The notes under the pieces were generated by a model. That model had not been told where the DNA came from, ran no database searches, and worked only from the letters and a program-made list of their open reading frames with translations. From Marinilongibacter aquaticus (GTDB lineage: Bacteria; Bacteroidota; Bacteroidia; Cytophagales; Spirosomataceae): DNA of 64,000 nt. The stretch covers positions 3,621,501 to 3,685,500 of the forward strand of contig NZ_CP083757.1 of the NCBI RefSeq assembly GCF_020149935.1, in the 5' to 3' direction. Both the position numbers and the translations under genes were made by a program. Of the stretch, positions 2,456-58,254 are shown piece by piece (the stretch's first letter is position 1; each line of letters opens with the position of its first letter).

Positions 2456-2508
2456 AGAGGTCGGTCTAGTCAAAAATGACAAATAAATGACACCGACCTC
2501 TATTTTTT
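2456..2508 (+). terminator. Hairpin with T-run after tRNA-Arg
   Basis: AGAGGTCGGT (2456-2465) pairs perfectly with ACCGACCTCT (2492-2501) and a run of seven T follows. It probably ends the tRNA transcript inside the prophage, replacing the host terminator now at 58260. It overlaps the ATG at 2487, which argues against that codon as the integrase start. Confidence 0.6.
2474..2492 (+). other. Integrase arm-type site candidates (attL side)
   Basis: Two copies of AAATGACA at 2474-2481 and 2485-2492 are 11 bp apart, one helical turn. The same octamer occurs twice inside attR (58118, 58136). Position inside the prophage next to both cores suggests binding sites for the integrase N-terminal domain. 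Confidence 0.5.
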
Positions 2509-2531
2509 TGGCCGAAACCCGAAAACTGATC

Positions 2532-3686
2532 ATGGCTGAAGAATCATATCCCTACAAACCACCACGTATAGCCAAGCCAAAGGACGGTGACCTGTCGAAG
2601 CAATGGTTTGTCGAATACTATGTCTGGGACTACACCGCCAAAAGGCTGAAACGCAAACGCATTGTACTTTCTCAGCCCACCAAGAAACTCCGAATCGCTG
2701 AGGGAGAGAAGATTTCAAAGGAGATTCTTGAAGTTCTGGTCAACGGTGCCTACATCAATGGCCCGGCACCAAAGGACGAAAAAAGCAAGGAAGGTCCGAG
2801 AACATTGGACGGCCTGCTGGATGAATACCTAGATTACCTCAAGATTTACGCGGAGTTCTCCACTTGGAGAACCAGGAGGACGCATATACGCACCCTTAAG
2901 AAATACCTCACAGGCTTGGGGCTGATCGAGACCATAATGCCGGAAGAGGTTGACAAAATTATGGTAAACCGTTTTGCCGTGGCATTGCTCGAACAGTATG
3001 AATTGAGCAACAGGGGGCGGAACAACACCATTTTGGAACTGGCCACGGTGTTCAATAAATTCGTTTCTGACGGAATCATAGATAAAAACCCATTCACCGG
3101 CATTCGGAGCCTGCCGGCACCGGCCAAAAAGCATACGGCATTCAGGCCGTACCAGGTGCATGCATTCAAGCAGGCGGCCGTCAAGGACCCTCAGCTTTGG
3201 CTTGCCGTCCAGTTCATCTATTATACGGCAATCCGGCCCCGTAAGGAATTGCGGCTGCTTCGAGTGCGGGACATCCTGCCGAGTACGATCGTGATAAACT
3301 GGAAGACCGCAAAAGCAAAGAGGACCGACCATATTCGGATTCCCGAAGAGTTCCAAAAAGTGCTGGAGGCCTCGGGTGTGCGTAAATTCGATATGGAATA
3401 CTATGTTTTCGGCGAAGATGGACAGCCGGGGCCAAAACCATTGGGCGAAAAGAATCTCTACGACCGGCACACGAAAATACTGAAAGAGATCAAGGCCGAT
3501 GGCATGGACATCGATTTCTACTCCTGGAAACATACAGGTGCAATCGCACTTTGGGAGGCGACACAGGACATGTACCTGATAAAAGAGCACATGAGGCATA
3601 CCAGTCTTTCGGCAACCATAAAATACCTAAGAGATCTTGGCATTTTCGTGGACTACGGAAAAATACACCGCTTTCCGAAAATCTAG
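2532..3686 (+). CDS. Tyrosine-recombinase integrase
   Basis: Site-specific recombinase that would catalyse integration and excision at the tRNA core. With the ATG at 2532 it has 384 aa: an N-terminal arm-binding region, a SAM-like core-binding domain (about 90-190) and a catalytic domain. Visible catalytic residues are R235 (AIRPRKE), a lysine region near 258-263, K333-H334 (YSWKHTG, in place of the usual HxLRH), H356 (MRHTS) and the nucleophile Y365 (TIKYL). The open frame reaches an ATG at 2487, but that codon lies in the hairpin after the tRNA. It is the only clearly phage-enzyme gene on the plus strand at this end and converges on the last tail gene with a 4-bp overlap. Confidence 0.93.
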   Translation: MAEESYPYKPPRIAKPKDGDLSKQWFVEYYVWDYTAKRLKRKRIVLSQPTKKLRIAEGEKISKEILEVLVNGAYINGPAPKDEKSKEGPRTLDGLLDEYLDYLKIYAEFSTWRTRRTHIRTLKKYLTGLGLIETIMPEEVDKIMVNRFAVALLEQYELSNRGRNNTILELATVFNKFVSDGIIDKNPFTGIRSLPAPAKKHTAFRPYQVHAFKQAAVKDPQLWLAVQFIYYTAIRPRKELRLLRVRDILPSTIVINWKTAKAKRTDHIRIPEEFQKVLEASGVRKFDMEYYVFGEDGQPGPKPLGEKNLYDRHTKILKEIKADGMDIDFYSWKHTGAIALWEATQDMYLIKEHMRHTSLSATIKYLRDLGIFVDYGKIHRFPKI

Positions 3687-5207: not shown

Positions 5208-8200
5208 TTAGAAGTCACTGGCCATTGCAGCATTGTACTGTGCCTTTACGGCGGCATTGATTTCGTGAAGGGACAATGGGGGTTTATCCCGTATGTCCTC
5301 AAGCAGCATCGTATGTGCGTTGCTTTGCTTCATTTCATCCAAGAGTTTCGAAAGGAGTTCTAATACCAAGGGGTCCTGATTGTTTCCTCTTGCCGACAGA
5401 TTTGGCAATAAGCCGCCATTCGCAAAACTGTTGGGCGATGCGTAATTCATCATGTTGCCGTTTCGGGAAATCTTGGCACCTTTCATGTGCATGCTGCTAG
5501 TAAGAAGGCTGTCCACCAAATCTTTATTGTTCGCATAGGTGGCACGCGATAAAATAGGTTCTCCACCCTCGATTTCACCTACTGGGCGATTCGAAAGGTT
5601 ATCCCAAAGCGTAATGCCGCCCTGTGAATGCAAGGCACCTTGGGGGATAATTCCACCGCTTCCGAATCCACGGGGGCTGTTTGATCCAGTATTTGTATTA
5701 CTTGAATTTGAAGTGCTGTTGTTATTCGAAGATGGTATTACAATACTTCCTGCGAGTGCATTTATTTGATTCAATTGTGCCATTATATTATTCAGTTGCT
5801 CAGCTGTGATGATACCTTGCTGATATGCCTTGAATGCAGCATTTCGGATGTCTTCATATCCAGCAATCATAAGATCCTTCATACGTTCAAAAGAAGCTGC
5901 AAGTGCCGCATCTTTTTCCTCACCCAATCTTTGCAATTCTGCATTATGTCTAGCTGCCTCTGATTCCAATTCAGAATTTCTATCCAATTCACGTTGTATA
6001 TCAGCAGCCTTTTTTTCTATGGCCAAAAGTTCCAAACGATCATTGATTTCGTTCTGAATTTTCTCAGTTTCTGAATATTCTTTCCTTTTTTGGCCTTCGT
6101 TGTTCACGATAAATTCCAATTCCGAATTGTACCAATTTTGCAGGTCGGCCAATGCTTTTGCTCTAGCATCACGGGCTGCATTGATGGCATCAATTTGGGC
6201 TTGATCCATTCCTGAAGTAATCTCCATGTCGGCCAGTGCAAAAGTCTGCATAATCTGGCTTCGTTTAGCGGCATATTCCGACATGACACTTGTTTTGCTC
6301 TCTTCATTATTGATTAAGGCAAGAAGCTGTTCGCTTTGGCTTTCCAATAGGGCAAGAGTGTCCGCATCATATTGTTGATTTGCCATGAGAGATTCATAAT
6401 CATAGCGGGCATTTATATTGGCAATTGCCTTGTTGAAGAATTCATCTTCTAGACGTTTCTTTTCTTCGTAATTGGCTTTCACTAGATTGGCATACTTCAC
6501 TTCTGCTTCAATCAGCTTCGTATAGGGTTCGACTCCATTGGCCCTATCCATTTCGGCTGTTTTAGAAATGATTTCATCCATAATTTCCAGCTGTGATTGC
6601 ATTTGCTCTTCAATACTCTCATTACCGGTATAAATTGTGCCATAAATATCAGAGAGACTTGATATTGCAGAACTGAAACTATTAAACCGATCTTCGGCAC
6701 CATTCCACATGCTTTCTATTATCTGCTTCGAGCGTTCGATCTCATTTTGAAGTCGTTCCTGTTCTTGTTTCATTTTCAAAAATATTGTATCCACGACACC
6801 TTCGATAATAGAGAAAGCGGCGGCTACATAATCGCCTTTTGCCAATGCCGAAAGCATATTTTTAAACCCATTGGCAATGATTTTGCTTTCTTCATCCATG
6901 CTTTCGGTCATCTTGTCCAAAATCTTGCCGAAAAGCTGAAGGGATTTGTCACCTACTTCTTTACGCAAAGCCAATTGCTTTTTCAATTTGTCCTCAACTT
7001 GTTTTAACTCTTCATTGTTCAGCAAGTCAATTTCCTTATTGAAAAGTCTTCGGGCAATGATACCTTTTGCAAGGTATTCATCCCTGTTTTTGGATATTTC
7101 TTCTCTAGCCTCCTTGTCCAATTTCGCTGATGCATTGTTTAAATTTCGTACTGCTTCGAGTTTCTTAGCATTCGCTAATTTTTCTATTTGTTCCTTTTTT
7201 TCTTCATTGTCTTTTGCGGCCTCAAGTTGGTCAGATTTCCATTTTTCAATTTGTTCGTTTTCATGTCTGTAAATCAATTTTAAGAGGTCTTTACGGAGGT
7301 CGTAGCGTTTTTTCCCGTTTAGCTCTTCTGCTTCGATTGTATCTTCAAGAAGTTTCTTTTTTTGGTCAAATTCCCATCCTTGAACCTTTTGCGTCCATTC
7401 TTTCTGGGATTTGGCACGTTTTTTCCTATCTTCTTCTTCAAGCTTTTGAATGTCCGTCAGTAATTTACCTTTAAGTTCTTTTTGAAATTTGGCCTTAACT
7501 TCCTCTGAGGCTTCCGATTTTTCAATCGATTCAAGTTCGTCCTCATATTTTTGCATTAGTTTGATCTTGTTTCGTTCAAGTTCATCCTCGATACTGTCAG
7601 CCCAAGCCGCATCCATTTTTTTAATTAGTGTCCTAGTGTCATCATATTCCTTTTGAAGAAGTTTCTCCTTTTCTTTGGCTTCCTTTTCAGCAGCCTTTTT
7701 ACGTTTATCAAGTTCCTTTTGTGTTAATTTTGTTATCTTTTTTTGACCATTTTCTTGAGAAGCAACATAGTCATCCCAAGACATCGTTGCTTTAGATTGA
7801 ATGTCTTCTTGATCCTTCCAAATTTCAATGAAACTATTTCTTATATCACCAAAACTTTCTGAGGCAGAATCTTTCAATTCAATCCATTTCTTATTCAATC
7901 TCGTGGCGGCTTGTCCGGCCGTAGCGAAGTCACCTGTAATAAAATTTCCAACAACTTTGGCACCTTGTCCTAGCAATTCAAAAAATTGAATTGTTGATTT
8001 TATTCCTGCCACAACAGTTAAAAGAACAGATGGGATAATATTTAGAATACTCGCCAAAACCTTTACAGCAGTTCCCATATCAAAGGTTTTATCCCTGAAC
8101 GAAGGAAAAGCATCATAAAACAACTTGCTGCCTTCGCTTAAAAGTATGTTGTAGTATTTTGCCAATTGTTGAGCGAATACACTAAGAGGACCACTTTTTT

Positions 8201-9290
8201 CAATGAATTCAGATACAATATCAGAACCTCTTAGAAACATATCCAGTACAAAATGAAATATTGGCTTTAACTTTTCACCAAGACTTACAGCGATGAAATC
8301 TATTTTGTCACCTAAGTTACTCTGTTTCCCGGCAAGGCCTTCACTTATGTCGGCAGTAAGGCCCATAACACCGTTCATTTGCCCGAATTTATTAATAGCG
8401 GACAAAACTCCTTTTTCGGTACGATCAACTGTTTCGGTGACTCCATTGAATGTTAAACTAACCTTGTTGCCAGTGGTTTGTGCTTTTACGCCTATTTCAT
8501 TCCACCTTTCGGTATTATTAATGTCCTGAATGGCTTCAACAACTTGTCCAAAGTCCTTTTTCAAATAGTTTGAAAAGTCTGATATGGCGGTTATATCCCT
8601 GCTAGTTGGAAGAACGCCCCTACTTTTCAATTTGATAAAACTATCGGTCAATTCATCTACACTCCAGTTTGTTGTTGCTGCGGTAGTTTTGATCATTTCC
8701 ATAGCAGAGGTCGCCAATTGCTGACTACCAAGCATGTTTTTCAGGGTCGTATCATAGGCTTCAAATTTTGCCGTAATGTCAAAAATTTGTTTTCCAACTT
8801 CAATAATTTTACGACCAAATGCCAATATTGCGGTTATTGCAAAAGCACCAGCAATCCAACTTTTTAAGTTGCTCCATGTACTTTTTTGGGACTCAACTTC
8901 ATTTCCAGTTGAACGAATTGCTTTATTTGTTTCAGCCAGTTTTTGGTTTACGGGCTCTAACTTGGCCATCGTGTCCAACCACTCTTTACTGCCTATTTTT
9001 TGCTTTCTTAATTCGGAGTTTAAAGTTTTTCGATAAGCTACCAGTTCGTTCATACTGGCGTTGTTCACGTCCACGGCCTTGGCCTGTTCTTTCATGGCGG
9101 CCGTAGCATCATTTATTGTGGTTTTTATCTCACGCCACTCTTCGCTGTTTTTTTTCCCTTCCAATTCAAGAAGTGTCAGTTGCGATTTGAGGTCTTTCAC
9201 TCCTTTCGATAACGAGTCTATTGACTTCTCAGCATCGTCTCCCAATAACTCCACCCGTAAACGGGCAATGTCTTCCATCGTGTAGGCCAT
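5208..9290 (-). CDS. Tail tape measure protein
   Basis: A 1360-aa protein with long charged coiled-coil stretches (about residues 1-110, 520-800 and 860-1200), a hydrophobic middle with segments around residues 140-165 and 405-445, and a Ser/Asn/Gly-rich segment near 1220. This is the layout of phage tape measure proteins, which set tail length and help DNA passage. At about 0.15 nm per residue the tail would be near 200 nm (inference). The ATG at 9290 is preferred over a TTG two codons upstream. A late-promoter-like motif lies at 9343-9353. It is separated from the other tail genes by the island at 9.4-13.8 kb. Confidence 0.88.
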   Translation of the reverse strand: MAYTMEDIARLRVELLGDDAEKSIDSLSKGVKDLKSQLTLLELEGKKNSEEWREIKTTINDATAAMKEQAKAVDVNNASMNELVAYRKTLNSELRKQKIGSKEWLDTMAKLEPVNQKLAETNKAIRSTGNEVESQKSTWSNLKSWIAGAFAITAILAFGRKIIEVGKQIFDITAKFEAYDTTLKNMLGSQQLATSAMEMIKTTAATTNWSVDELTDSFIKLKSRGVLPTSRDITAISDFSNYLKKDFGQVVEAIQDINNTERWNEIGVKAQTTGNKVSLTFNGVTETVDRTEKGVLSAINKFGQMNGVMGLTADISEGLAGKQSNLGDKIDFIAVSLGEKLKPIFHFVLDMFLRGSDIVSEFIEKSGPLSVFAQQLAKYYNILLSEGSKLFYDAFPSFRDKTFDMGTAVKVLASILNIIPSVLLTVVAGIKSTIQFFELLGQGAKVVGNFITGDFATAGQAATRLNKKWIELKDSASESFGDIRNSFIEIWKDQEDIQSKATMSWDDYVASQENGQKKITKLTQKELDKRKKAAEKEAKEKEKLLQKEYDDTRTLIKKMDAAWADSIEDELERNKIKLMQKYEDELESIEKSEASEEVKAKFQKELKGKLLTDIQKLEEEDRKKRAKSQKEWTQKVQGWEFDQKKKLLEDTIEAEELNGKKRYDLRKDLLKLIYRHENEQIEKWKSDQLEAAKDNEEKKEQIEKLANAKKLEAVRNLNNASAKLDKEAREEISKNRDEYLAKGIIARRLFNKEIDLLNNEELKQVEDKLKKQLALRKEVGDKSLQLFGKILDKMTESMDEESKIIANGFKNMLSALAKGDYVAAAFSIIEGVVDTIFLKMKQEQERLQNEIERSKQIIESMWNGAEDRFNSFSSAISSLSDIYGTIYTGNESIEEQMQSQLEIMDEIISKTAEMDRANGVEPYTKLIEAEVKYANLVKANYEEKKRLEDEFFNKAIANINARYDYESLMANQQYDADTLALLESQSEQLLALINNEESKTSVMSEYAAKRSQIMQTFALADMEITSGMDQAQIDAINAARDARAKALADLQNWYNSELEFIVNNEGQKRKEYSETEKIQNEINDRLELLAIEKKAADIQRELDRNSELESEAARHNAELQRLGEEKDAALAASFERMKDLMIAGYEDIRNAAFKAYQQGIITAEQLNNIMAQLNQINALAGSIVIPSSNNNSTSNSSNTNTGSNSPRGFGSGGIIPQGALHSQGGITLWDNLSNRPVGEIEGGEPILSRATYANNKDLVDSLLTSSMHMKGAKISRNGNMMNYASPNSFANGGLLPNLSARGNNQDPLVLELLSKLLDEMKQSNAHTMLLEDIRDKPPLSLHEINAAVKAQYNAAMASDF

Positions 9291-9342
9291 GACCAAAGGT
9301 TTGATTCAAGCATCAAATTCCGATCCGCTTTTGGACTTTGGA

Positions 9343-26213: not shown

Positions 26214-27215
26214 TTATAGAATTGCGTATTTCCGCTCTTTTTTGTTGACAAATCGAGTAGATGGCTTTTCGATACGTGCAGCATAAAGGCTACTATTGAA
26301 ATATTCCGAAAACACATCTTCGGAAGCTTTTTCTTGTAGGAATTTCACAAGTTCATTTTTGGCCAGTTCCAATGCATTGGATACTTGAATTGAAATTTCG
26401 TTTCTTCGGCTTTCTGGCAAAACCATCTCACTTTGAATGCCATCATAAGTACTTACCAATCGCCAGTTTTCATTAATATTCAAAAACGTGACACCTTCGG
26501 AAACACCTTTCAAAGCGACTACTGCCGCGATTTTTTTAATCGCTTCCTTTTCTTCGGTTTCAAGGTCATCAGAAACCAATCTGGCTTGCAATGCATTATT
26601 GAACTCGGCTGAAATAATACCACTCAAATAGCGGCCCTGGGCTTTGGCAAATTCGGACTTTAAAGAAAGAAATAGCCTTCTGCTGTTTTCGGCAAAAGGA
26701 AAATGCTCGGTTAAAACAATTGCACTAGATACAAATGCACTTTTTAAAATGGTATAGTTCTCCGAAGATTTCCATGTCTCAAAATCGGCAGCATTTTTTT
26801 CGAGATAGGCGATCAGCTTTTCCATTGCCATATCTCCTCGTCCTATTGCAGTTTGAAGGCTTCCAATCGTTGCCCATTTGGTCGGTGCTTGCGTATTCGG
26901 AGGGGTTTGAAAGTTTTTTCCAGAATCTCCAGTTGTCATTATCAGCCTAAAAGTACCGACGGCATCGGTATATGCGGCCAATGAAATTCTTAGCAAATCG
27001 ATGGCACGCTTTTTTTTCGGGCTCACCTCTGTTACAAAGTCCAAACCACTTTCGGATATAAATTCTGACAACTCGTCGAGAAAATCGGCTCCGAGAATTT
27101 CCAAAACGAAAAACTCCTCAGCTTCCCGAACAAAGGCTTTCCAAGTTGCCCAATTCATATTTCTTTGAATGCCGCCCAAATAGTCTTTAAGCTGCTCTAC
27201 GTTCTTGAAAATCAT
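26214..27215 (-). CDS. Head-tail adaptor-like protein (DUF6712-type)
   Basis: 333 aa, mostly helical, starting MIFKNVEQLKDYLGGIQRN. Features such as FVLEILGADFLDEL and DLLRISLAAYTDAVGTF match the uncharacterised family found next to portal genes in Bacteroidota phages (DUF6712 as I recall it). Its helical bundle and position after the portal suggest a connector. It overlaps the portal gene by ATGA. Confidence 0.6.
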   Translation of the reverse strand: MIFKNVEQLKDYLGGIQRNMNWATWKAFVREAEEFFVLEILGADFLDELSEFISESGLDFVTEVSPKKKRAIDLLRISLAAYTDAVGTFRLIMTTGDSGKNFQTPPNTQAPTKWATIGSLQTAIGRGDMAMEKLIAYLEKNAADFETWKSSENYTILKSAFVSSAIVLTEHFPFAENSRRLFLSLKSEFAKAQGRYLSGIISAEFNNALQARLVSDDLETEEKEAIKKIAAVVALKGVSEGVTFLNINENWRLVSTYDGIQSEMVLPESRRNEISIQVSNALELAKNELVKFLQEKASEDVFSEYFNSSLYAARIEKPSTRFVNKKERKYAIL

Positions 27216-28525
27216 TGCTGGGAATTGTTTGGGTGTGATACATCATTTTTGCTAGTGCTACCCGGCACATACGAATTGATCCGCTGGATATCGAGCCAAT
27301 ATTCTTGAAATACATTGTCAATTTTTAGAGCGTATCGAAGCGGTTTGCATAGTCGCTCTCTGTCGAAAATTGTCAAGAAATCTTGCATATAAGTAGCTTC
27401 AGCAGCAATTTCCTTACCGCTGCTACCCATATCGCTGCCCAATTGTACGCCCGCAAGTTTACCGGGTATACCATGCCCACTAGCTTGGACAAGGTTGGCG
27501 GCTTCGAACATCTTTATGAAAGCTTCATCCTTAATAGGATTGGGAATAGGCGTAATCTTTACTTCTTTAAGTGTCGATTTCCCATCAGCAGCAATTTTGC
27601 TGAAGGTGACTACTATTTTGTTAGCTTCATCAATAGAACTCAACGTTTCGGTAATTTCGTTGAGGGTGTCTTCCTTCAATTTCTCTACTGCTTCATCATC
27701 CAAACCTTCTTGATCGAAATAATCATCTGGGAATGAGATGTGATGGGTTACAAAAAAACCATTTCGAAATGCTGCTTCGTAATAGTTCGGAACCTTGTTT
27801 GCTACGTCTGTCCATCTTTTTGTTCCCCACCAGTTCGCCAAACCGTAAATCTTTTGACCCGGTTTTCTTGCAATAAGGTGTATGATTGAAACCGGATATT
27901 TTGTAGGATTTTTTGGATCAAAGGCTGGTAATGTGGTACACGCGTCTATGTCAATATTTTTACTGTACCCAAATTCTTCATTAAGCAAAAAAGACTCAAT
28001 TCGGTTGCCACTTTTCGGCCGTAATGCCCGAATCTCATTATTATCCAGCACCTCAATACTTTCAACTTTTTTGGTCGATGAATCTAAAACCAATTTAATA
28101 TTCAATTCAGCACCAAAAGCCATTTGCAGCGAGGCGGCTTCCCAATAGTCAGAGATGTCCAATTTTTCCATCCATTCCTGAAATTCCTTTGGGAGCAGAG
28201 CTTTGCTGTGATCTATCAAACCTTCGTTGTCTCGCTTATACAAACGAAATCCCGCACCGGCGACAAACGCCCCCTTTGTGTCCAATAACTGCCATTTATT
28301 AGGGCTGTTTGTGGCCAGAAGGTGCATTTGCAACAGCTTGTCATCTGATTTGCCTCGCTTAAAATATTCCGAAGTCGATTGGGGTTTTTTCCCATCGTTT
28401 TCGGAGTACTCACTAGTGTCAATTATTTTACTGGCATCGTTACCAAAAGTGATTGCAACAGCTTGTCTATGACCATAAGTCGCTGTGTAAACCTTCTTGC
28501 CAATTTTGTTTAATACACTACCCAT
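27212..28525 (-). CDS. Portal protein
   Basis: 437 aa. Portal proteins form the dodecameric DNA gate at the head vertex. Visible features are KGAFVAGAGFRLYKRD (wing), HLIARKPGQKIYGLANWWG (near residue 215-233), a long stem-type helix (NYYEAAFRNGFFV) and a C-terminal crown-like helix region. Length and place, downstream of terminase and before the adaptors, agree. The first residues overlap the previous gene by 8 bp. Confidence 0.8.
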   Translation of the reverse strand: MGSVLNKIGKKVYTATYGHRQAVAITFGNDASKIIDTSEYSENDGKKPQSTSEYFKRGKSDDKLLQMHLLATNSPNKWQLLDTKGAFVAGAGFRLYKRDNEGLIDHSKALLPKEFQEWMEKLDISDYWEAASLQMAFGAELNIKLVLDSSTKKVESIEVLDNNEIRALRPKSGNRIESFLLNEEFGYSKNIDIDACTTLPAFDPKNPTKYPVSIIHLIARKPGQKIYGLANWWGTKRWTDVANKVPNYYEAAFRNGFFVTHHISFPDDYFDQEGLDDEAVEKLKEDTLNEITETLSSIDEANKIVVTFSKIAADGKSTLKEVKITPIPNPIKDEAFIKMFEAANLVQASGHGIPGKLAGVQLGSDMGSSGKEIAAEATYMQDFLTIFDRERLCKPLRYALKIDNVFQEYWLDIQRINSYVPGSTSKNDVSHPNNSQQ

Positions 28526-28985: not shown

Positions 28986-30587
28986 TCATTTACGGATTGT
29001 AATAACACCTGAATTGCTCCATCTTGTTTTTCCAATCAGATGGCCGAACTTGGCATATAGGATGTAATCGAAGGCATCGGTCGGGTCGGTGGCATACTCA
29101 CGCATGCGTGCTTTTGATTCACTCTTTTTGTCTTTCGAATAACTCTTGTCAGTCTTTACCAACGTGTTTTGAAGTGCGATAATAAAGCTCTTATTGGTCG
29201 TTTGGTTGATTTTTACTTTCGGGGCATTTTCATTGATTCCAGAAAGCATGAGATTTACGAGGGAATACCTTTTTTGAGGATTTGGATAGCTTTTGGATTC
29301 TCGACGAAATACTTTCCATCCATTATCTTTCAAGATTTTGACGAACTCATCGAAGAATACGAGATTTGATTTACTCGTACTGGCCGATCTTTTATTGCCA
29401 TTCGGATCACCGTACACCAATACTTCCTTTTTCCCATGATCCATGTATTCGGTGATGAACCAACTGCCCAACTGCTGCAATAAACTTTGCTCTTGCTCGG
29501 TACTTACGACAGTAGGCTTCTTGAATTCACTGTTGATGACACGAAACTCTTTTGCATACTCTTGGCAGACCAAGAGCCAACAGATGTCAGCATTGAAGTC
29601 GAGACTGACTTCCAACTGCCGATCGGCATGGTAGTCATTGCTACTCCATTTTAGCTTACCGGTTTGATCGGTATGGTAGTCGTATGTCTTGCTGTACAGA
29701 TTCAGACTGGCATTGAAGCCGTGGTAATATGCATTTGGCAGTTTGACCACACGCTGATTCAGTACCTCTACATTATACTTCCAAGGGTCCATTGCGTCTC
29801 GAAGACGATCACCGTAATCATCAGGCAAAAAATGCTGATTGTCCTGGTAGGTCGATTCCATGTAAAGATATTCGGGTGGATTTTCGGCCAACCATTTCTT
29901 TCCTTTACCCACGCCTTCTGCTTCAAGAGATTCGTATTTCTCCTTTCGCAGCTTCAGCATATTCTTGTATTTTTCCTCGGTATCGTAAATCCAGTTACCC
30001 TCGATAGTCCAAGAAGCTGAAGAGAAGTCGAAAAAACCGTGGTGTAAAGGATGATTATAATACGGGGCATCCTTTCGCCCACGTAATGCGGGAATCAAAA
30101 TCTTCTCAATGAAATCGAATGAGATCGTGGCCGATTCGTCTACAAGAATTCCGTCGATCGATAAACCTCTATGTGTTTCTTTGTTGTCCTGCGAAACAAG
30201 CCTGATTGTAAAGCCATTGATGAATGTTATACAATATTGATATATTTTCTTGCCGGGCTTTTTGTAAGGAGTTCGCCAATGTTTCGGGGGTTGAGACTGA
30301 ACGACATAAACACCATATGGCTGATGTTTTGGATCATACTCGTAAAAACCAAGTAACTCCAAGCCCTCCCGAATTGCTGGCACCACAATCGAGTCCAATT
30401 GAACGTAGGTCAGTCCTGCGGCTACCCATGTGGCCCTTGGGAATTCTTGCCACATCGATCCGACTTGCAGACCCATAACGGTCGATTTTCCAGAACCACG
30501 GCCGCCGATAAAGCTTTTCCGCTTCGCTCGGCTCTTTAGAAACTTTGCCTGTTTTGCATTGATGTCCGTTTTTTGAATCCTACTCAT
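28986..30587 (-). CDS. Terminase large subunit
   Basis: 533 aa motor and nuclease for DNA packaging. Walker A GGRGSGKST at residues 28-36, Walker B ILVDES at 147-152, and an RNase H-like nuclease domain with acidic residues in SLDFNAD (near 345) and DPTDAFDY (near 505). It overlaps the small subunit by 8 bp. Residues 8-128 are duplicated in a degenerate copy at 36.3-36.8 kb. Confidence 0.95.
   Translation of the reverse strand: MSRIQKTDINAKQAKFLKSRAKRKSFIGGRGSGKSTVMGLQVGSMWQEFPRATWVAAGLTYVQLDSIVVPAIREGLELLGFYEYDPKHQPYGVYVVQSQPPKHWRTPYKKPGKKIYQYCITFINGFTIRLVSQDNKETHRGLSIDGILVDESATISFDFIEKILIPALRGRKDAPYYNHPLHHGFFDFSSASWTIEGNWIYDTEEKYKNMLKLRKEKYESLEAEGVGKGKKWLAENPPEYLYMESTYQDNQHFLPDDYGDRLRDAMDPWKYNVEVLNQRVVKLPNAYYHGFNASLNLYSKTYDYHTDQTGKLKWSSNDYHADRQLEVSLDFNADICWLLVCQEYAKEFRVINSEFKKPTVVSTEQEQSLLQQLGSWFITEYMDHGKKEVLVYGDPNGNKRSASTSKSNLVFFDEFVKILKDNGWKVFRRESKSYPNPQKRYSLVNLMLSGINENAPKVKINQTTNKSFIIALQNTLVKTDKSYSKDKKSESKARMREYATDPTDAFDYILYAKFGHLIGKTRWSNSGVITIRK
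30205..30568 (-). repeat. 364-bp direct repeat, functional copy (in terminase)
   Basis: Aligns without gaps to 36424-36787 in the same orientation; most bases match. The block encodes the terminase N-terminus from DINAKQ to NGFTI. The two copies flank 5.8 kb of accessory genes. Confidence 0.9.
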
Positions 30588-40666: not shown

Positions 40667-41509
40667 CTAAGACAGTTTATCAGCCATTTCCACGGCATCG
40701 CCCAAAAAGCCGAATCCGTCAATAAGGCCCAGTTTTATAGCCTCGTTACCGTTGAATTCCAGACCGTCGAAAACACTTTCGTCCACATCTTTTCGGCCGG
40801 ATTTCACCACCTTCACAAATGTTTTTCTACACTCGGTCGCCCCCTTTCGTATGTTCTCGCGAGCTTCTTCGGTAAGACTTTCGGTCAAATTGTCCAATAC
40901 CTTTTTTTCGGAGCCCACCGCTCTAATGATTTCGATATTGATATTGTTTTCTTTGTACCAATCGGCATAATCCAAGTGTGTGCAGTATACACCGATAGAG
41001 CCAGTACCACCTATTGTTCGGCTTTCCATCAATATTTTCGTGGAGTGGCAAATAGCCCATACACCTCCGGAATATGCATTTACCACGTGTGACACCACGG
41101 GCTTTTTCGTTTTGCAGTATTTTACGGCATTTTCAATGAGCTCAATGCCGTTTGCATCACCTCCGTAACTGTCCGTCGAGAGCACCACGGCAGAAATGTC
41201 GTCATCTTCAGCTGCTTCGATAATCCAAGCGGCCACGATTTCGCTGCCCCAAGAGTACCAAGTAGTGTATCGCGTGATAATCTGATCGATCGGAATGATG
41301 GCGATAAGGCCATTTTTGGACCGTGCCTTGTTCACGGCATAATTATAGCCGTATGGTGTTTCTGTGCGGGCAGCGGCAAGTGCGAGTAGTGGTTGTTCAA
41401 CCTCTCGAAGGTTTAAATCTTTGTCATGAAACAGGCCATGAAGCAAACCTTTCATCCTGCTTGGTTTCATCAACCAATAGTCCGTACTTAAAATATCATT
41501 AACAGTCAT
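40667..41509 (-). CDS. Head maturation protease, S49/SppA type
   Basis: 280 aa of the SppA-like ClpP/crotonase fold. The glycine-rich strand VVLSTDSYGGDANGIEL precedes the nucleophile serine in NAYSGGVWAI (near residue 145); GGTGSIGVY follows, with a downstream lysine as general base. Phages of this kind use it to trim scaffold and capsid during head maturation. It is upstream of the scaffold candidate by 24 bp. Confidence 0.85.
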   Translation of the reverse strand: MTVNDILSTDYWLMKPSRMKGLLHGLFHDKDLNLREVEQPLLALAAARTETPYGYNYAVNKARSKNGLIAIIPIDQIITRYTTWYSWGSEIVAAWIIEAAEDDDISAVVLSTDSYGGDANGIELIENAVKYCKTKKPVVSHVVNAYSGGVWAICHSTKILMESRTIGGTGSIGVYCTHLDYADWYKENNINIEIIRAVGSEKKVLDNLTESLTEEARENIRKGATECRKTFVKVVKSGRKDVDESVFDGLEFNGNEAIKLGLIDGFGFLGDAVEMADKLS

Positions 41510-44414: not shown

Positions 44415-44895
44415 TAATTTGTTCCCTGTTATTCCAAAGTCCTTCTAATTTGTCTTCACGATCTTGGGTCATCTGGACACTACAAGTGTAGCACTTGGCA
44501 ACATGATGTCCATTTTTATCTCGACCTTGATACGGTTTTTTACCGCAGAATGGACAGGCGTGAAGCTTTGTTGTATCCAATGCTTTAAGGGCGTTCAGTC
44601 TATCAATTTCGGCAGCTATCAACGCACCCGCTTTTTGAAGTTCTCTAATACGATTTTCAGGAGTTGGTTTCCACCATGTAGATTCAAATGGCCAGATCGG
44701 TGGCGTATTATTATAACCTGGCGAAGTCGTTCGTCTGTAAAGTTCGGCAGAAGCATAGGCGGCGGCTGCGTGTGCTAAATCACCTGTATCATGCCTTGCA
44801 TCGTGTTCTGGTGTCCAACCCTCTTTTTCAATTTGTCGCTGCCTTTCTTCGGCAATCAGTTCAATTCCAGTTTTCATCATCTTGTTCAAAGTCAT
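44404..44895 (-). CDS. Fusion of a conserved phage helical domain with a Lar-like zinc ribbon
   Basis: 163 aa. Residues 8-105 follow a pattern known to me from many phages: IELIAEERQRQIEKEGWTP, then EHD, LAHAAAAYA, WWKP and KAGALIAAEIDRL; its function is unknown, possibly a MazG-like all-alpha fold. Residues 113-160 are a zinc ribbon with CPFCG ... C..C and a final WNNR, as in Lar restriction-alleviation proteins that protect phage DNA. A fusion of the two would place nucleotide handling and anti-restriction in one chain. The leader carries a CCGCC hairpin. Confidence 0.7.
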   Translation of the reverse strand: MTLNKMMKTGIELIAEERQRQIEKEGWTPEHDARHDTGDLAHAAAAYASAELYRRTTSPGYNNTPPIWPFESTWWKPTPENRIRELQKAGALIAAEIDRLNALKALDTTKLHACPFCGKKPYQGRDKNGHHVAKCYTCSVQMTQDREDKLEGLWNNREQINGI

Positions 44896-44928
44896 ATTTT
44901 GTTAGTTTATACCGCCAAGGCGGCGGGT

Positions 44929-45168
44929 CTAATGTTCATTGGCCGAAGATACACTTTTCAATTTGTAGATTTTGCAGGGGTAGGTTTGGGCTTTCTCTGC
45001 AGCGATAAAATCGGCCACGCGTTCAAAAACATTCCCATTCACATCAACCCATATCCACTGCTCACCACCTCTTGATTTTTCGGGCAGTTTTCGAGGGACT
45101 TTGTTTATCCAATCTTGCTTACTTTGCAACTCTAAAATAAGCTCACCTTTTACTATTATTTCTTCCAT
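44929..45168 (-). CDS. Hypothetical protein, 79 aa
   Basis: Starts MEEIIVKGELILELQSKQDW. Beta-rich, with GGEQWIWVDVNGNVFERVADF (about 34-54), a pattern I associate with small Bacteroidota phage proteins of unknown role. The stop is followed by the CCGCCTTGGCGG hairpin in front of the Lar fusion. Confidence 0.65.
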   Translation of the reverse strand: MEEIIVKGELILELQSKQDWINKVPRKLPEKSRGGEQWIWVDVNGNVFERVADFIAAEKAQTYPCKIYKLKSVSSANEH

Positions 45169-45635: not shown

Positions 45636-45711
45636 AATTATGAATTTTGAATTAATGGGTACTCTAAGTTTTCCCCTTCCCTTTAAACCCGTATACATAC
45701 TTTAGACGGCT

Positions 45712-45933
45712 TTACTCACCACCAACCGAAATCATAGACTCAGTACCTACTAGCACATCATCCAATTCAAACATGGGGTCGTTTTCCGATTCCGGTTAGA
45801 AATTTTCAACGGTGACAGAGAAGCATTCTAGACTGTCTCTTATTTTGTTTTCACATAAATCTTGTACCTGTGAGACTGTCATATTTTCAGGCACATATGC
45901 TTCATACATGGCGATTACTATAATTTTTTTCAT
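45712..45933 (-). pseudogene. Small gene with an in-frame stop
   Basis: ATG at 45933 begins MKKIIVIAMYEAYVPENMTV and stops at TAA (45796-45798) after 45 codons. The same frame continues for 27 more sense codons (PESENDPMFELDDVLVGTES...) to TAA at 45712-45714. The composition stays protein-like after the first stop, so this is probably one 73-codon gene broken by a nonsense change, or a 45-aa protein with a fossil tail. Upstream lies the second CCGCC hairpin. Confidence 0.6.
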
Positions 45934-45965
45934 ATTTTGTTTTTATGCCGCCAAGGCGGCGGTTG

Positions 45966-46337
45966 TTACATCAAACTAAAATCGCAGTAAAGGTCGAGGT
46001 GCACATTTGCGACAAGACGCACCGCTTCTCTTGTCGGAAAAACGAGGCGGGAGCCGACATACGAAAACCGGTTAACGAAGTCGTAGTCGTAGTACGAGAA
46101 CTCGGAGGCCGCACCATCCGAAAGGAAGAACCATGCGTGATATTTTCTTTGGCTTCCATTCGTCCAATCGAGTGTTCTTCCTGATTGCTTCCAAGCTGCA
46201 CGGCTCAATACCGACAGTTTATAGAATGCGGTGATTGCTTTTCCTTCTGCTTCTTCCAGCATCGATACGTCCGGCAAGGCTGAAGGGTCAAGGCCGACGA
46301 ATTCTGCAGCCAATTCAAATGTTTCCAGTATTTCCAT
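45966..46337 (-). CDS. Variable-region protein A (DGR-target-like), 123 aa
   Basis: Starts MEILETFELAAEFVGLDPSA. The N-terminal 65 residues are helical. Residues about 70-98 (KYHAWFFLSDGAASEFSYYD to SYVGSRL) resemble the C-type-lectin-like end of hypervariable phage proteins and are encoded by an 87-bp cassette shared with the next gene upstream. The two cassettes differ at 18 bases, all at codon positions 1 or 2. It starts 1 bp after the stop of protein B. No function is proven; ligand-binding display is inferred. Confidence 0.7.
   Translation of the reverse strand: MEILETFELAAEFVGLDPSALPDVSMLEEAEGKAITAFYKLSVLSRAAWKQSGRTLDWTNGSQRKYHAWFFLSDGAASEFSYYDYDFVNRFSYVGSRLVFPTREAVRLVANVHLDLYCDFSLM
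46044..46130 (-). repeat. Variable cassette copy A (VR-like)
   Basis: 87 bp, aligned without gaps to 46414-46500. 29 codons, 13 of them different, with every third base identical. The 3' end in coding sense is a 21-bp identical block (TCGTATGTCGGCTCCCGCCTC counted in two parts: TCGTATGTC and GGCTCCCGCCTC), GC-rich like a DGR mutagenic-homing boundary. Confidence 0.85.
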
Positions 46338-46338
46338 T

Positions 46339-46779
46339 TCAGTTTATTAATTGATTGTACAGGGCAAGAAATTGATTTCCCACATATTTTGCCTTTTCTT
46401 CCGAGCTAAGACAGAGGCGGGAGCCGACATACGAAATCGAGCGAACGCAGCTGAAGTCGTTGAACGAGAACCCGGAGCCCGAACCAGACGAATTGAAGAA
46501 TGGGTAGTGTTTATATACATTGCTGTTGCCGTAATCCATCCATTCACCGCCGTTAACGGCCTTTGTCACCATTGTCAGTTTGGAATATGCCAGTTCATGG
46601 GATTCCAAGCCGGCTCTTGTTTCCAGCCATTTTTCATAGTCCACACCGAGAAATGAAAATGCATCTTCTACCGTCTCTATGGCTCGGTAGTCATGCATAT
46701 TCCTTTTGATCTCGGCCACCTGCTCTTTGGTGAGTCTGATCTCGACATTATTCCCGTTGAATTGAATTGTTGTTTTCAT
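46339..46779 (-). CDS. Variable-region protein B (DGR-target-like), 146 aa
   Basis: Starts MKTTIQFNGNNVEIRLTKEQ. Helical N-terminal part with a short beta start, then residues about 92-125 (YKHYPFFNSSGSGSGFSFND to SYVGSRL) with the cassette shared with protein A, then a conserved-type tail LCLSSEEKAKYVGNQFLALY. The tail and the N-terminal parts of A and B are diverged, in contrast to the cassette. It follows the cytosine methyltransferase gene by 11 bp in the early operon. Confidence 0.72.
   Translation of the reverse strand: MKTTIQFNGNNVEIRLTKEQVAEIKRNMHDYRAIETVEDAFSFLGVDYEKWLETRAGLESHELAYSKLTMVTKAVNGGEWMDYGNSNVYKHYPFFNSSGSGSGFSFNDFSCVRSISYVGSRLCLSSEEKAKYVGNQFLALYNQLIN
46414..46500 (-). repeat. 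Variable cassette copy B (VR-like)
   Basis: Partner of 46044-46130. Variable codons in B/A order include TTC/TAC, AAC/TAC, AGC/GAC, TGC/TTC, CGC/AAC and ATT/TTT; of the 18 differing positions, 12 have A in one copy, as expected if an A-containing template was mutated. Confidence 0.85.
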
Positions 46780-46790
46780 ATTTTGTTAAT

Positions 46791-48383
46791 CTATGCCACG
46801 CGAGCGGCGGTTTTCATTTGTTTGCTTATTTCCAGATTGGACATGGCGATGGCCATTACTACATTTTTTTCAACTGCATTTCCGATGCATTTCTTTTGAT
46901 CCGTTTGGTTGCCAACCATTCGGTAGTCCTCTGGGAATCCCATTATTTTCAGCAATTCCCTCACCCGAAGCATCCGCATCTTTATATCGACGATGTTGTA
47001 TTCGGCCATCAAATATTTTATATTCTTCATCCCGGGGCTGTCGCTTTCGTAAATAGCGATGTCGAAATGGCCACTGCTGGCCGTGATCAGGTAGGGTGGG
47101 GATTTGTCCATTCGGGCAATCAAAGTGAAGCAAGGCCGTTCAATGCTCCAATTGTGGCCACCATATTGCGGATTAAGCAGAAACGTGCGGCACACGCTCT
47201 GTTTTGGGTTGCTCAAAACCGTTGGGTTTGGCAGGTCTAGCCCACGGTTTTTCTGTCCGCTTGAATATTGACTCGTGATGAATCCGATCCCGTCTTTCGT
47301 GCGAACGGTCGGGCTTGGTTCGTCCATTCCCGTGCAGAAGCCATTTCCGTAGTAGTGCTGAAGGAAATTCGCGGAAACCATCGAATGGTGGTCCTTGCAT
47401 GTCACAGTACCGGCAGGTGCTTCGATGCTTATATTCTTGCCTTCTGGGCTGCCACTATAATACTTTGAAATGAAAACCGTACCAAGCCTATTCTGACAGG
47501 CTACCGTGGGGCATGGCTCATTGATTCCCGGAGGAAAGTGCTTTCCATTTGAATTCGTGGAATTATATTTCAAAATAAAGCTTTCGTCGCCGTCCGCGAC
47601 AAATTTCACCAATCCCGCATATATACGCTGCAATGTGGCTTCAACGAGCGGTTTCTTTCGCGTGAAAATACTCTCGCCTTCGTCCTTGAAATCGAGACAA
47701 TTCTTCACCGCTTTCCACGGTTTCAGATTCGGTATATCGGCCTTTTTGCCGGGTTTTATATGTGTTTGCTTTGGCCAAGCCAAGAAAATGGGGTCTTTGG
47801 CAAAGATGCCGAAAAGGCGGTTCCGACTTGTGTACGCACCGTAGTTTGCAGCGTTCAGTTCTTTCCAATCATCTTTGTATCCACGGGCACATATTCTCTT
47901 ACGCCAAGCCAACCAGTCTTTTCCTTTCTTTCTGCTTATCGGCTTGCCGTTCCTGTCGAGCGGCCCCCAGCACATGAATTCCACCACGTTTTCGATCATG
48001 ATCAAAAATGGGTCCAGTGAGTCTATATAGCGGAAAAGATGATTGGCCAGGGTGCGGCTGTCCGCATCTCGGGGTTGTCCGCCTTTTGCCTTGCTGAAAT
48101 TCGTGCATTCCAAGCTGGCCCACAGGATCAGTTTGGCCTTCGCATATTTCCGGCGTGCAGCAGCAACTACCTTCTGTAGTTCGAAGAGATCGAGAGTACG
48201 AATGTCTTCCTCGAAGTGCTGCACCTCCGGATGGTTTAGCCAGTGGCTTTTTATCGCCTTGGGGTCGTGATTTACGGCCGCGATCACCTTGTACCCCGGC
48301 ACGCTGCTGAAAGCCAAGGTGGTGCCACCAAAACCGCAAAAGAGGTCAACGATGATGTATTGTACATCCTTACTTTTTGTCAT
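46791..48383 (-). CDS. DNA (cytosine-5) methyltransferase
   Basis: 530 aa. Motif I VDLFCGFGGTTLAF (12-25), catalytic cysteine C93 in SLECTNFS (motif IV, with SLEC instead of the usual PC or SPEC), ENV at 131-133 (motif VI), TSRNRLFGIF (motif VIII) and GNAVEKNV (motif X). The target-recognition part (about 270-430) contains several similar units with EPCPTV, APAGTVTCKD, EPSPTVRTKD and PNPTVL, pointing to internal duplications. It may protect phage DNA from host restriction. The repeated 13-mer lies upstream of the ATG. Confidence 0.93.
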   Translation of the reverse strand: MTKSKDVQYIIVDLFCGFGGTTLAFSSVPGYKVIAAVNHDPKAIKSHWLNHPEVQHFEEDIRTLDLFELQKVVAAARRKYAKAKLILWASLECTNFSKAKGGQPRDADSRTLANHLFRYIDSLDPFLIMIENVVEFMCWGPLDRNGKPISRKKGKDWLAWRKRICARGYKDDWKELNAANYGAYTSRNRLFGIFAKDPIFLAWPKQTHIKPGKKADIPNLKPWKAVKNCLDFKDEGESIFTRKKPLVEATLQRIYAGLVKFVADGDESFILKYNSTNSNGKHFPPGINEPCPTVACQNRLGTVFISKYYSGSPEGKNISIEAPAGTVTCKDHHSMVSANFLQHYYGNGFCTGMDEPSPTVRTKDGIGFITSQYSSGQKNRGLDLPNPTVLSNPKQSVCRTFLLNPQYGGHNWSIERPCFTLIARMDKSPPYLITASSGHFDIAIYESDSPGMKNIKYLMAEYNIVDIKMRMLRVRELLKIMGFPEDYRMVGNQTDQKKCIGNAVEKNVVMAIAMSNLEISKQMKTAARVA

Positions 48384-50955: not shown

Positions 50956-51444
50956 TTAATATTTTAAATCTGTCCAATGAACTATTTGTCCCTGTAAGCC
51001 ATCTTCGAAGTACACCCAGAAATGCATGAGGGAATGAAAGCCATCATTCAATGCCACTTGCTCAACTTCCGCCTCGGAGAGAATCCGACCATCTACTTTC
51101 ACGATTGTTCCCGGCAGAGAGTCCGACTTCCTAATTTCTATGTCCTGCACGCTTTTTACCCGCATTACCGGTGCGAACTGGAAATACTTTTTCGTCCTTG
51201 CCCTGATGGCAAAGTGAATGGCATCGCCAGCCTTCCAGCGTTTTCCAGTCCTGAACGTGTGCAGCTTGGGGTGGCCTTTTCTCCACGCTCCTTGAAATAG
51301 GCCGTGTTTTCCTCCCTCTTCAACAAACTGCAGCAAGGCCGCTAGTTCAAATTCTTTTTTTGCAGCGTTCAATAGGCCGTGCATGATCTTTTCGGGGAAA
51401 AGGGTTGCTCGCCGACCGTGCATTGTTTTGAATCCAAGTATCAT
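50956..51444 (-). CDS. ASCH-like domain protein
   Basis: 162 aa. Residues 55-160 follow the ASCH/PUA-like pattern: KLHTFRTGKRWKAGDAIHFA, then TKKYFQFAPVMRVKSVQ, and LNDGFHSLMHFWVYF. ASCH domains are thought to bind RNA or modified bases. In a phage with several DNA-modifying enzymes, recognition of a modified base is possible. Overlaps the next gene upstream by ATGA. Confidence 0.65.
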   Translation of the reverse strand: MILGFKTMHGRRATLFPEKIMHGLLNAAKKEFELAALLQFVEEGGKHGLFQGAWRKGHPKLHTFRTGKRWKAGDAIHFAIRARTKKYFQFAPVMRVKSVQDIEIRKSDSLPGTIVKVDGRILSEAEVEQVALNDGFHSLMHFWVYFEDGLQGQIVHWTDLKY

Positions 51445-51695
51445 GATTGCTCGGGTTTATTTGTTGAACCTAAATACTTGCCACACACAGGGCAATAGGC
51501 CATCATTATTTCCGTTTTTTTTGGTGTTTTTCGGTTCTTCAACTTGAGCTCAACCACGTAAAATGGCCTTACGTCAAACCCATCCTCATAAGTGAAGGCC
51601 AAAGGCATTTCGGCAGATTCGACATCGTAATCTTTTATTTTCATTTCGCCAGACTCAAGCTGGCTCTTGACTTGTTGGAAACATTGACATTTCAT
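51441..51695 (-). CDS. Zinc-ribbon protein, 84 aa
   Basis: Starts MKCQCFQQVKSQLESGEMKI. Cys pairs C3/C5 at the start and CPVCG (near 69-72) at the end would form one zinc knuckle across the chain. The middle is beta-rich (FDVRPFYVVELKLKNRK). I associate this plan with short phage proteins but know no function. It overlaps the ASCH-like gene by ATGA. Confidence 0.65.
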   Translation of the reverse strand: MKCQCFQQVKSQLESGEMKIKDYDVESAEMPLAFTYEDGFDVRPFYVVELKLKNRKTPKKTEIMMAYCPVCGKYLGSTNKPEQS

Positions 51696-58231: not shown

Positions 58232-58254
58232 GGTTTGACTCCTGCGGAGGTCAC
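58232..58254 (+). other. attR core
   Basis: Exact 23-bp copy of the tRNA-Arg 3' end (GGTTTGACT to GGAGGTCAC). Left of it is phage DNA, right of it the original tRNA terminator. Confidence 0.93.

What the first reader, a model, noticed from the sequence alone, without database searches (positions are those of the whole stretch)
46044..46500. Twin 87-bp cassettes with the codon-position signature of a diversity-generating retroelement
Proteins A and B share a gap-free 87-bp (29-codon) cassette. By direct count they differ at 18 bases in 13 codons, and all 18 lie at codon positions 1 or 2; all 29 third bases are identical. Divergence under purifying selection gives the opposite pattern. At 12 of the 18 sites one copy has A on the coding strand, the rest fit loss of A in both. 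The variable codons read as mutated AAC/AAT (TAC, TTC, GAC, AGC, TGC, CGC). The flanks on both sides are diverged, so the cassettes were not simply copied with their genes but seem written from one common template. The coding-sense 3' end is a GC-rich identical block, as in mutagenic homing. Established: DGR reverse transcriptases mutate template adenines. Inference: these are DGR variable repeats.
Basis: partly seen in the sequence, partly recalled or inferred. Interest (0 to 1): 0.9.

Follow-up and report, generated by a model that had tools for sequence, protein, structure and literature searches.

The report
Prophage hypervariable cassettes missing their engine
Two neighbouring genes in a bacterial prophage carry matching 29-codon cassettes that bear the marks of a mutation-making reverse-transcription system, yet neither the template nor the enzyme of such a system was found in this genome.

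Summary
Two 87-bp cassettes differ at 18 bases in 13 codons: 8 at codon position 1, 10 at position 2, 0 at position 3. Outside the cassettes the two genes differ at 52 of 86 aligned third positions.

They are best read as variable repeats (VRs) of a diversity-generating retroelement (DGR). In same-family genomes and phage contigs, homologous genes, usually in pairs, sit beside a template repeat (TR) and an RT. With the TR defined by position, 1264 of 1316 VR-TR mismatches in 49 of 52 loci lie at template adenines.

The surprise is what is missing. In the window's 4.64-Mb genome I found no DGR RT and no third cassette copy: an orphan VR pair. A distant contig (L043) keeps part of a TR and no RT. 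Genome G383 has one target gene and no match to the DGR RT profile.

Remote targeting occurs in the family: in LoVEphage one TR matches a tail fibre and, 15 kb away, a member of this family (19 of 19 differences at adenines).

Leftover DGR targets are reported in Treponema and Thiohalocapsa. This adds a prophage case in a target family of unknown function.

The parts
46339..46779 (-). target (variable protein) gene B, 146 aa
   Evidence: ORF; phrog_11581 E=8.8e-18; 53-54% identical to two Emticicia sp. BO119 proteins encoded beside TR and RT
45966..46337 (-). target (variable protein) gene A, 123 aa
   Evidence: ORF; phrog_11581 E=1.8e-7; 44% identical to L029's second target protein, E=1.7e-29
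46414..46500 (-). variable repeat (VR) of gene B, 87 bp
46044..46130 (-). variable repeat (VR) of gene A, 87 bp
46414..46436 (-). invariant GC-rich 3' block of VR-B (initiation-of-mutagenic-homing-like; name recalled)
   Evidence: last 23 coding-sense bases identical in both copies; the last 12 identical to both L029 VRs
46044..46066 (-). invariant GC-rich 3' block of VR-A
   Evidence: as above
45699..45965 (.). place where relatives carry TR then RT; neither found here
   Evidence: no tblastn match there of ORFs from ten relatives' loci, RT ORFs included; no template-pattern match in the window but the two VRs; RNA model: nothing at default filters, only 8.9-11 bit matches nearby when unfiltered
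46791..48383 (-). neighbour: C5-cytosine DNA methyltransferase
   Evidence: phrog_116 E=1.4e-67; homologues in L029 and L043; Pfam DNA_methylase just after the RT in L060 and L085
48439..50952 (-). neighbour: helicase + DNA methyltransferase fusion
   Evidence: phrog_16 and phrog_67; homologue directly upstream of a target gene in L029 and L031
2393..58254 (.). the prophage: integrase 2487-3686, tape measure 5208-9296, portal 27212-28525 (weak, E=1.7e-4), terminase 28986-30587, head protease 40667-41509
   Evidence: 23-bp direct repeat at 2393-2415 (3' end of tRNA-Arg) and 58232-58254; PHROGs

Best explanation
The twin cassettes are variable repeats of a diversity-generating retroelement that this prophage has lost. 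In the intact form, seen in relatives, a structured RNA containing the TR is copied by the DGR RT, which puts random bases opposite template adenines; the cDNA then replaces the VR in two (sometimes one or three) short target genes (this step is established DGR biology, not tested here). Both VRs are overwritten from the same TR, so non-adenine bases, third positions included, stay alike while the flanks diverge. Here no TR or RT was found in prophage or genome, so genes A and B most likely carry frozen variants. The last overwriting is not ancient: 0 of 29 third positions differ (95% upper bound 9.8% pairwise) against 52 of 86 outside. Shown: the codon signature, homology to TR/RT-linked targets, adenine specificity in relatives, no RT or TR found here. 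Inferred: that the ancestor of this prophage had the core, and that nothing outside the assembly still writes the cassettes.
For: Codon signature. A whole-genome RVT_1 search gives one RT at E<=0.001; the DGR RT profile finds nothing at E<=10, and that RT's best curated models are retron-type, below cut-off. VR-TR differences at TR adenines: 12/13, 13/14, 14/15, 12/12, 15/15, 14/14; over 49 of 52 loci 1264 of 1316. Of the 14 window differences inside the 72-nt core, 9 fall on A of the L029 TR, 9 on A of the L030 TR, 11 on A of either (23 of 72 columns; P=9e-5; P=0.004 when only codon positions 1-2 count). Twin VRs of RT-bearing relatives show the same signature: 21 of 35 short VR-VR pairs have no third-position difference. 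Degraded relatives: L043 with a truncated TR and G383 with a target and no match to the DGR RT profile. Remote targeting: G095/L032, 13 of 13 at adenines; LoVEphage, 19 of 19.
Against: The window's own template was never seen, so adenine specificity here is indirect. 3 of the 14 placed differences fall on columns without A in either relative's TR: own-template adenines or decay, not told apart. Against relatives' TRs only part of all differences are at A (wA 9/17, 9/21, 9/23; wB 13/17), because those TRs are diverged homologues. The genome is one contig but scored 95.75% complete; a plasmid, a second phage or a strain variant with the core would be missed. The genome-wide RNA-model search scored only 150 of 1857 first-look candidates. 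Two weak unfiltered RNA-model matches lie downstream of gene A (11.0 and 8.9 bits; E=0.53 and 1.6 over 22 kb; 0.024 and 0.074 when only 1 kb is searched); I read them as chance.
Confidence: 0.86

Rival explanations
1. The cassettes are still written, by a TR and RT acting in trans from an element absent from this assembly (another phage, a plasmid, or strain variants that keep the core).
For: Remote targeting occurs in this family: G095/L032 lies about 48 kb from its RT with 13/13 differences at TR adenines, and in LoVEphage a target 15 kb away shows 19/19. The cassettes show no third-position decay (0 of 29). In Thiohalocapsa, RT-less loci were diversified in trans or had intact variants in the population (PMC10907252, passages).
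Against: No matching TR or DGR RT found in the held genome; no target gene in the two same-genus genomes G001 and G002.
Confidence: 0.12
2. Gene conversion or recent segmental copying between A and B followed by positive selection on amino acids, without any DGR.
For: Would also give identical third positions between diverged flanks.
Against: It predicts no preference for template adenines and no TR/RT beside homologues; relatives show both. It would need 18 changes at positions 1-2 and none at position 3 by selection alone; a similar pattern recurs in RT-bearing relatives.
Confidence: 0.02
3. Chance or codon-usage artefact.
For: No cassette codon ends in A in either copy, so third-position mutation at A could not show.
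Against: P about 2e-12 for 0 of 29 third-position differences at the flank rate; 79% over 87 nt without gap, genome E=2.7e-15.
Confidence: 0.005

Closest known systems
Phage-borne DGRs with two target genes (nd4/nd12 'tentaclin' phages, PMC10743442, sections 9 and 11 and passages; Bacuni phages of Bacteroides uniformis, PMC8143477, passages)
   Same: One TR serves two targets; adenine-limited VR changes; one target can be remote from the RT (Bacuni).
   Different: Here the targets are two short paralogues (123 and 146 aa) with the VR 24-25 residues before the C-terminus and no known domain, and no RT or TR was found.
Leftover or degenerate DGR loci in bacterial chromosomes (Treponema denticola, PMC4891356, passages; Thiohalocapsa PB-PSB1, PMC10907252, passages)
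   Same: Target genes with VR signature but without RT and/or TR.
   Different: This one is in a prophage with recognisable ends, and a contig of an uncultured Bacteroidetes genome (L043) shows a loss half-way.
LoVEphage and related gut phages (MW660583; PMC8525569 and PMC12629997, passages)
   Same: A member of this protein family (hhalign E=8e-25) is a remote DGR target 1.7 kb after a cytosine methyltransferase gene. PMC12629997 reports second VRs near DNA methyltransferases.
   Different: LoVEphage keeps RT and TR, and its TR also matches a tail collar fibre; whether PMC12629997 means this gene was not checked.
Bordetella phage BPP-1 DGR and its tail tip protein Mtd (known here only through citing papers and recall)
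   Same: Mechanism: adenine mutagenesis, invariant homing block at the VR 3' end.
   Different: Mtd is a 381-aa tail protein with a terminal VR (PMC10743442, section 9); these proteins are small, lie by methyltransferase genes and show no fold match to solved structures.

Membership tests
Diversity-generating retroelement (complete system) | VR in a target gene: near-identical repeat whose differences map to template adenines | tested here: met
   By homology only: adenine-limited in relatives; 11 of 14 placed window sites on adenine columns of two relatives' TRs. The own TR is not available.
Diversity-generating retroelement (complete system) | Template repeat | tested here: not met
   No third copy found in window or genome
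Diversity-generating retroelement (complete system) | DGR-type reverse transcriptase | tested here: not met
   Single RVT_1 match in the genome, not matched by the DGR RT profile; the relatives' RTs read IGNYLSQ and this one MGAPTSP at the motif (that IGxxxSQ marks DGR RTs is recalled)
Diversity-generating retroelement (complete system) | Template RNA structure seen in this DGR branch | tested here: not met
   Model R1 finds 15 of 18 RT loci not used to build it at E<0.01 (some near-identical to training loci) and nothing in the window at default filters
DGR target (variable protein) family of this branch (phrog_11581) | Homology to proteins encoded beside TR and RT | tested here: met
   60 of 90 examined loci carry such targets (repeat views of the same record included); 52 loci have target + RT after 6 repeat views were set aside
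C-type-lectin-fold DGR variable protein | VR displayed on a C-type lectin fold | tested here: inconclusive
   Models of B and of a G095 relative (mean pLDDT 86.6, 87.2) have a poorly predicted VR and no PDB match (best E 3.4 and 4.4); matches in BFVD at E<=0.001 are 5 uncharacterised phage proteins; no PDB sequence match; profile match to the LoVEphage tail fibre is 16 columns only. Hint for it: the LoVEphage TR serves both.
Degenerate/orphan DGR target | VR-bearing target without RT or TR in the genome | tested here: met
   limit: one contig, 95.75% complete
Actively diversified locus | VR polymorphism within a strain or between sister isolates | not testable with these tools
   No reads and no sister prophage held

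The most novel reading that the evidence does not exclude
This DGR branch serves mainly to diversify small paired phage proteins made with the replication and DNA-methylation genes, acting inside the host cell (for example recognising host defence or superinfecting phages) rather than on the tail. A prophage can fix a useful variant by discarding the template and the RT, keeping two frozen binders. Nothing here excludes this: neighbours in the window and in sampled relatives include methyltransferase, primase, helicase-loader and replication genes, and three genomes or contigs (G000, G383, L043) keep targets with no DGR RT found.
Probability: 0.22. Interest if true: 0.8.

Novelty: new variant of a known kind. 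Interest (0 to 1): 0.5.

Why it matters
It links a phage protein family of unknown function (phrog_11581; no Pfam or NCBIfam model above cut-off for A or B) to DGR targets, shows that a target pair can outlive the retroelement in a prophage, and shows that such targets lie by DNA-modification and replication genes as well as by tail genes. Surveys that start from the RT would miss such orphans; the codon-position signature can find them in single genomes. It also raises a testable question: why a phage keeps hypervariable binders it can no longer vary.

Tried and rejected
Ideas rejected: (1) the only RT in the genome as DGR RT: it lies beside a cas1-like ORF (my reading, not scored) and is not matched by the DGR profile. 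(2) A third cassette copy elsewhere: next matches E=0.35 or worse. (3) A template-RNA remnant after gene A: weak matches only. (4) C-type lectin fold by structure search: no match, not decided.

Led nowhere: first viral-contig scan with the single window protein and tblastn of it in phages, both empty; Pfam and NCBIfam gave no family for A or B above cut-off; Rfam found no family for the template RNA at gathering thresholds in the 7 sources searched; paper PMC11792537 (passages) had nothing on RT-less VRs.

Against my reading or dropped rows: one search set aside 6 loci as repeat views of records already held; the 52 loci still include near-identical contigs (for example L051-L054), so counts are not independent; most loci were found through the RT (80 kept of 271 matches), so the share with targets is not a population estimate. 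Three loci had no TR by position (L086, L091, L093); for L091 a farther partner has 29 of 30 differences at A (whose printout was cut in the middle). Low scorers kept in the count: L077 7/13 and 6/12, L061 11/14, L089 5/7. In one search TRs were chosen by adenine content, which is circular; one search replaces it. One search covers only the 72-nt core, so 14 of the 18 window differences. One search also printed a 4.2% bound on 69 sites; I dropped it because those sites were picked for being identical. The 35 VR-VR pairs hold 176, 188 and 48 differences at positions 1, 2 and 3; some are partly flank. Of the RNA measures the number of further pair types is weaker (22 of 500 shuffles reach it).

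Full report
1. What is there. Two minus-strand genes, B (46339-46779, 146 aa) and A (45966-46337, 123 aa), share an in-frame, gap-free 87-bp cassette (46414-46500 and 46044-46130). I recounted 18 differences in 13 of 29 codons: 8 at position 1, 10 at position 2, none at position 3; at 12 sites one copy has A. In a codon alignment of the two proteins, the 86 codons aligned outside the cassette differ at 51, 41 and 52 positions 1, 2 and 3; at that rate 0 of 29 third-position differences has a chance of 2e-12.

2. Where it is. The genes lie in a prophage bounded by a 23-bp repeat of the tRNA-Arg 3' end (2393-2415 and 58232-58254), with integrase, tape measure, terminase, head protease and a weakly matched portal. 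Upstream of B are a C5-cytosine methyltransferase and a helicase-methyltransferase fusion. The genome is one contig of 4,635,932 bases, scored 95.75% complete.

3. What is missing. The genome has one RVT_1 match at E<=0.001, in an ORF whose best curated models are retron-type and below cut-off and which the DGR RT profile does not match at E<=10. No third cassette copy was found by protein, DNA or pattern, nor in the window with a degenerate pattern. ORFs of 60 aa or more from ten relatives' loci, RT ORFs included, hit only the regions of the two target genes, the two methyltransferase genes and one further ORF (50959-51447) in the window.

4. What relatives show. Of 198 genomes searched with protein B, 3 matched, the own genome included; the other two are G084 (Emticicia sp. 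BO119, by equal contig lengths) and G095. Both carry target genes beside an RT. Beside the RT lies a template repeat. VR-TR differences lie at TR adenines in 12/13, 13/14, 14/15, 12/12, 15/15 and 14/14 cases. One further L030 VR carries a frameshift and was not counted there. A profile of the three RTs found 271 relatives in viral contigs, of which the best 80 were kept. Of 90 loci examined, 60 carry target homologues; after setting aside 6 repeat views, 52 have target + RT, 40 with two targets, 9 with three and 3 with one. With the TR defined by position beside the RT, 49 of 52 loci gave 99 VR-TR pairs: 1264 of 1316 mismatches are at TR adenines. Near-identical contigs are among them, so these are not independent events.

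5. Link to the window. Within the 72-nt core shared with L029 and L030, 14 of the 18 window differences can be placed; 9 fall on A of each TR and 11 on A of either one (23 of 72 columns, P=9e-5; P=0.004 if only codon positions 1 and 2 count); 3 fall where neither has A. Direct comparison of each window VR with diverged TRs is less clean (wA 9/17, 9/21, 9/23 and wB 13/17 at A), as expected when the own template is not available. The twin-VR pattern itself recurs: 21 of 35 distinct short VR-VR pairs in relatives have no third-position difference.

6. Orphans and remote targets. Found through the target gene rather than the RT, there are seven genomes or contigs: G000, G084, G095, G383, L042, L043, L044. 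Four have an RT beside a target. G000 has no match to RVT_1 other than the retron-like one and none to the DGR RT profile; G383 was searched with the DGR RT profile alone and gave none. L043, a 6.5-kb contig, has a target pair and a TR that breaks off at the start codon of a methyltransferase gene, with no RT on the contig; its 54-nt TR remnant differs from a VR at 10 sites, all adenines. The G383 locus gave no ungapped match above threshold with any of three relatives' TRs. In contrast the window's cassettes have 0 differences at 29 third positions (95% upper bound 9.8%). In G095 a fourth target, about 48 kb from the RT, differs from the G095 TR at 13 sites, 13 of them adenines. In LoVEphage (MW660583) one TR beside the RT matches a tail collar fibre (13 of 14 differences at adenine) and, 15 kb away, a gene of this family that lies 1.7 kb after a cytosine methyltransferase gene (19 of 19); family membership by hhalign E=8e-25.

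7. The template RNA. In relatives the TR is enclosed by a 12-pair stem and followed by a small hairpin and a longer interrupted one ahead of the RT. In 23 loci, 20 of 24 predicted pairs show compensatory changes. For the 3' part alone (27 loci), 97.6% of cells pair against 75.0% in shuffles, and the covariation score is 0.680 against 0.222 (0 of 500 shuffles). No Rfam family reached its threshold at the RNA in the seven sources searched; the two hits were tRNAs. A model of the 3' part found 15 of 18 RT loci not used to build it at E<0.01, some of them near-identical to training loci, and nothing in the window; unfiltered, the best window match is 11.0 bits, E=0.53 over 22 kb. Whole-genome: two in G084 and one in G095, which are training loci, none in G000 or G383, with only 150 of the first-look candidates scored per genome.

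8. What the proteins do. No Pfam or NCBIfam family above cut-off and no solved homologue by sequence or fold; the closest predicted structures are uncharacterised phage proteins. Models of B and of a G095 relative are mostly helical, with a poorly predicted VR before two C-terminal helices; whether the VR sits on a C-type lectin fold is undecided. Of the 90 neighbour ORFs listed I scanned 12 that I chose, mostly long ones; among them are primase, helicase-loader, replication-initiation-like, nuclease/FtsK and methyltransferase genes. This is not a census. Most likely A and B are binding proteins whose surface the DGR varied; whether in the virion or inside the cell is open.

9. Known or new. 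DGR targets left after loss of the core are reported in Treponema denticola (PMC4891356, passages) and degenerate, partly trans-served loci in Thiohalocapsa (PMC10907252, passages). Two-target phage DGRs are reported (PMC10743442, sections 9 and 11; PMC8143477, passages). Second VRs near methyltransferases are reported in gut prophages (PMC12629997, passages). Roux et al. (PMC8144416, sections 8 and 9 read) describe targets as typically with a C-terminal VR and viral ones of clades 1, 4 and 6 as mostly tail proteins. In the listings of my paper searches (titles and starts of abstracts; one search listed 12 of 83) I saw no RT-less prophage VR; that covers only this open-access library and says little. 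I file it as orphan DGR variable repeats, a variant of a known kind, and not as a DGR.

Noticed in passing
L029:7086-7290 and 22 other loci (alignment A6): The DGR template RNA of this branch has a covarying 12-pair stem enclosing the TR plus two downstream hairpins (20 of 24 pairs with compensatory changes), with no Rfam match there in the seven sources searched.
   Followed up: partly
L029:8240-8533, L071:5935-6243: A roughly 100-aa gene (phrog_19665, unknown function) follows the RT directly; ORFs of similar size sit in the same place in several other loci. Possible DGR accessory protein.
   Followed up: partly
MW660583 33613-34197 (L129:5881-6465): LoVEphage gene annotated 'hypothetical' matches, as a remote DGR target, the same template as the tail collar fibre (19 of 19 differences at template adenines).
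   Followed up: yes
44892-44933, 45928-45969, 46776-46817: Three copies of a 42-nt element with a GC-rich hairpin just before gene starts; two of them bracket the A-B gene pair. Possible module boundary or recombination site.
   Followed up: no
L030:7363-7695: Second target gene in Emticicia has a frameshift inside its VR.
   Followed up: no
L095:4977-5941: The RT is split over two overlapping reading frames.
   Followed up: no
G000:C1:2083131-2083739 (L001): The only RVT_1 match of the genome lies between ORFs that look to me like cas1 and a CRISPR processing gene; it resembles retron RTs by profile.
   Followed up: no
71-1465: Host ORF that looks to me like a ferredoxin-type N-terminus followed by a long K/P-rich repeat tail.
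   Followed up: no
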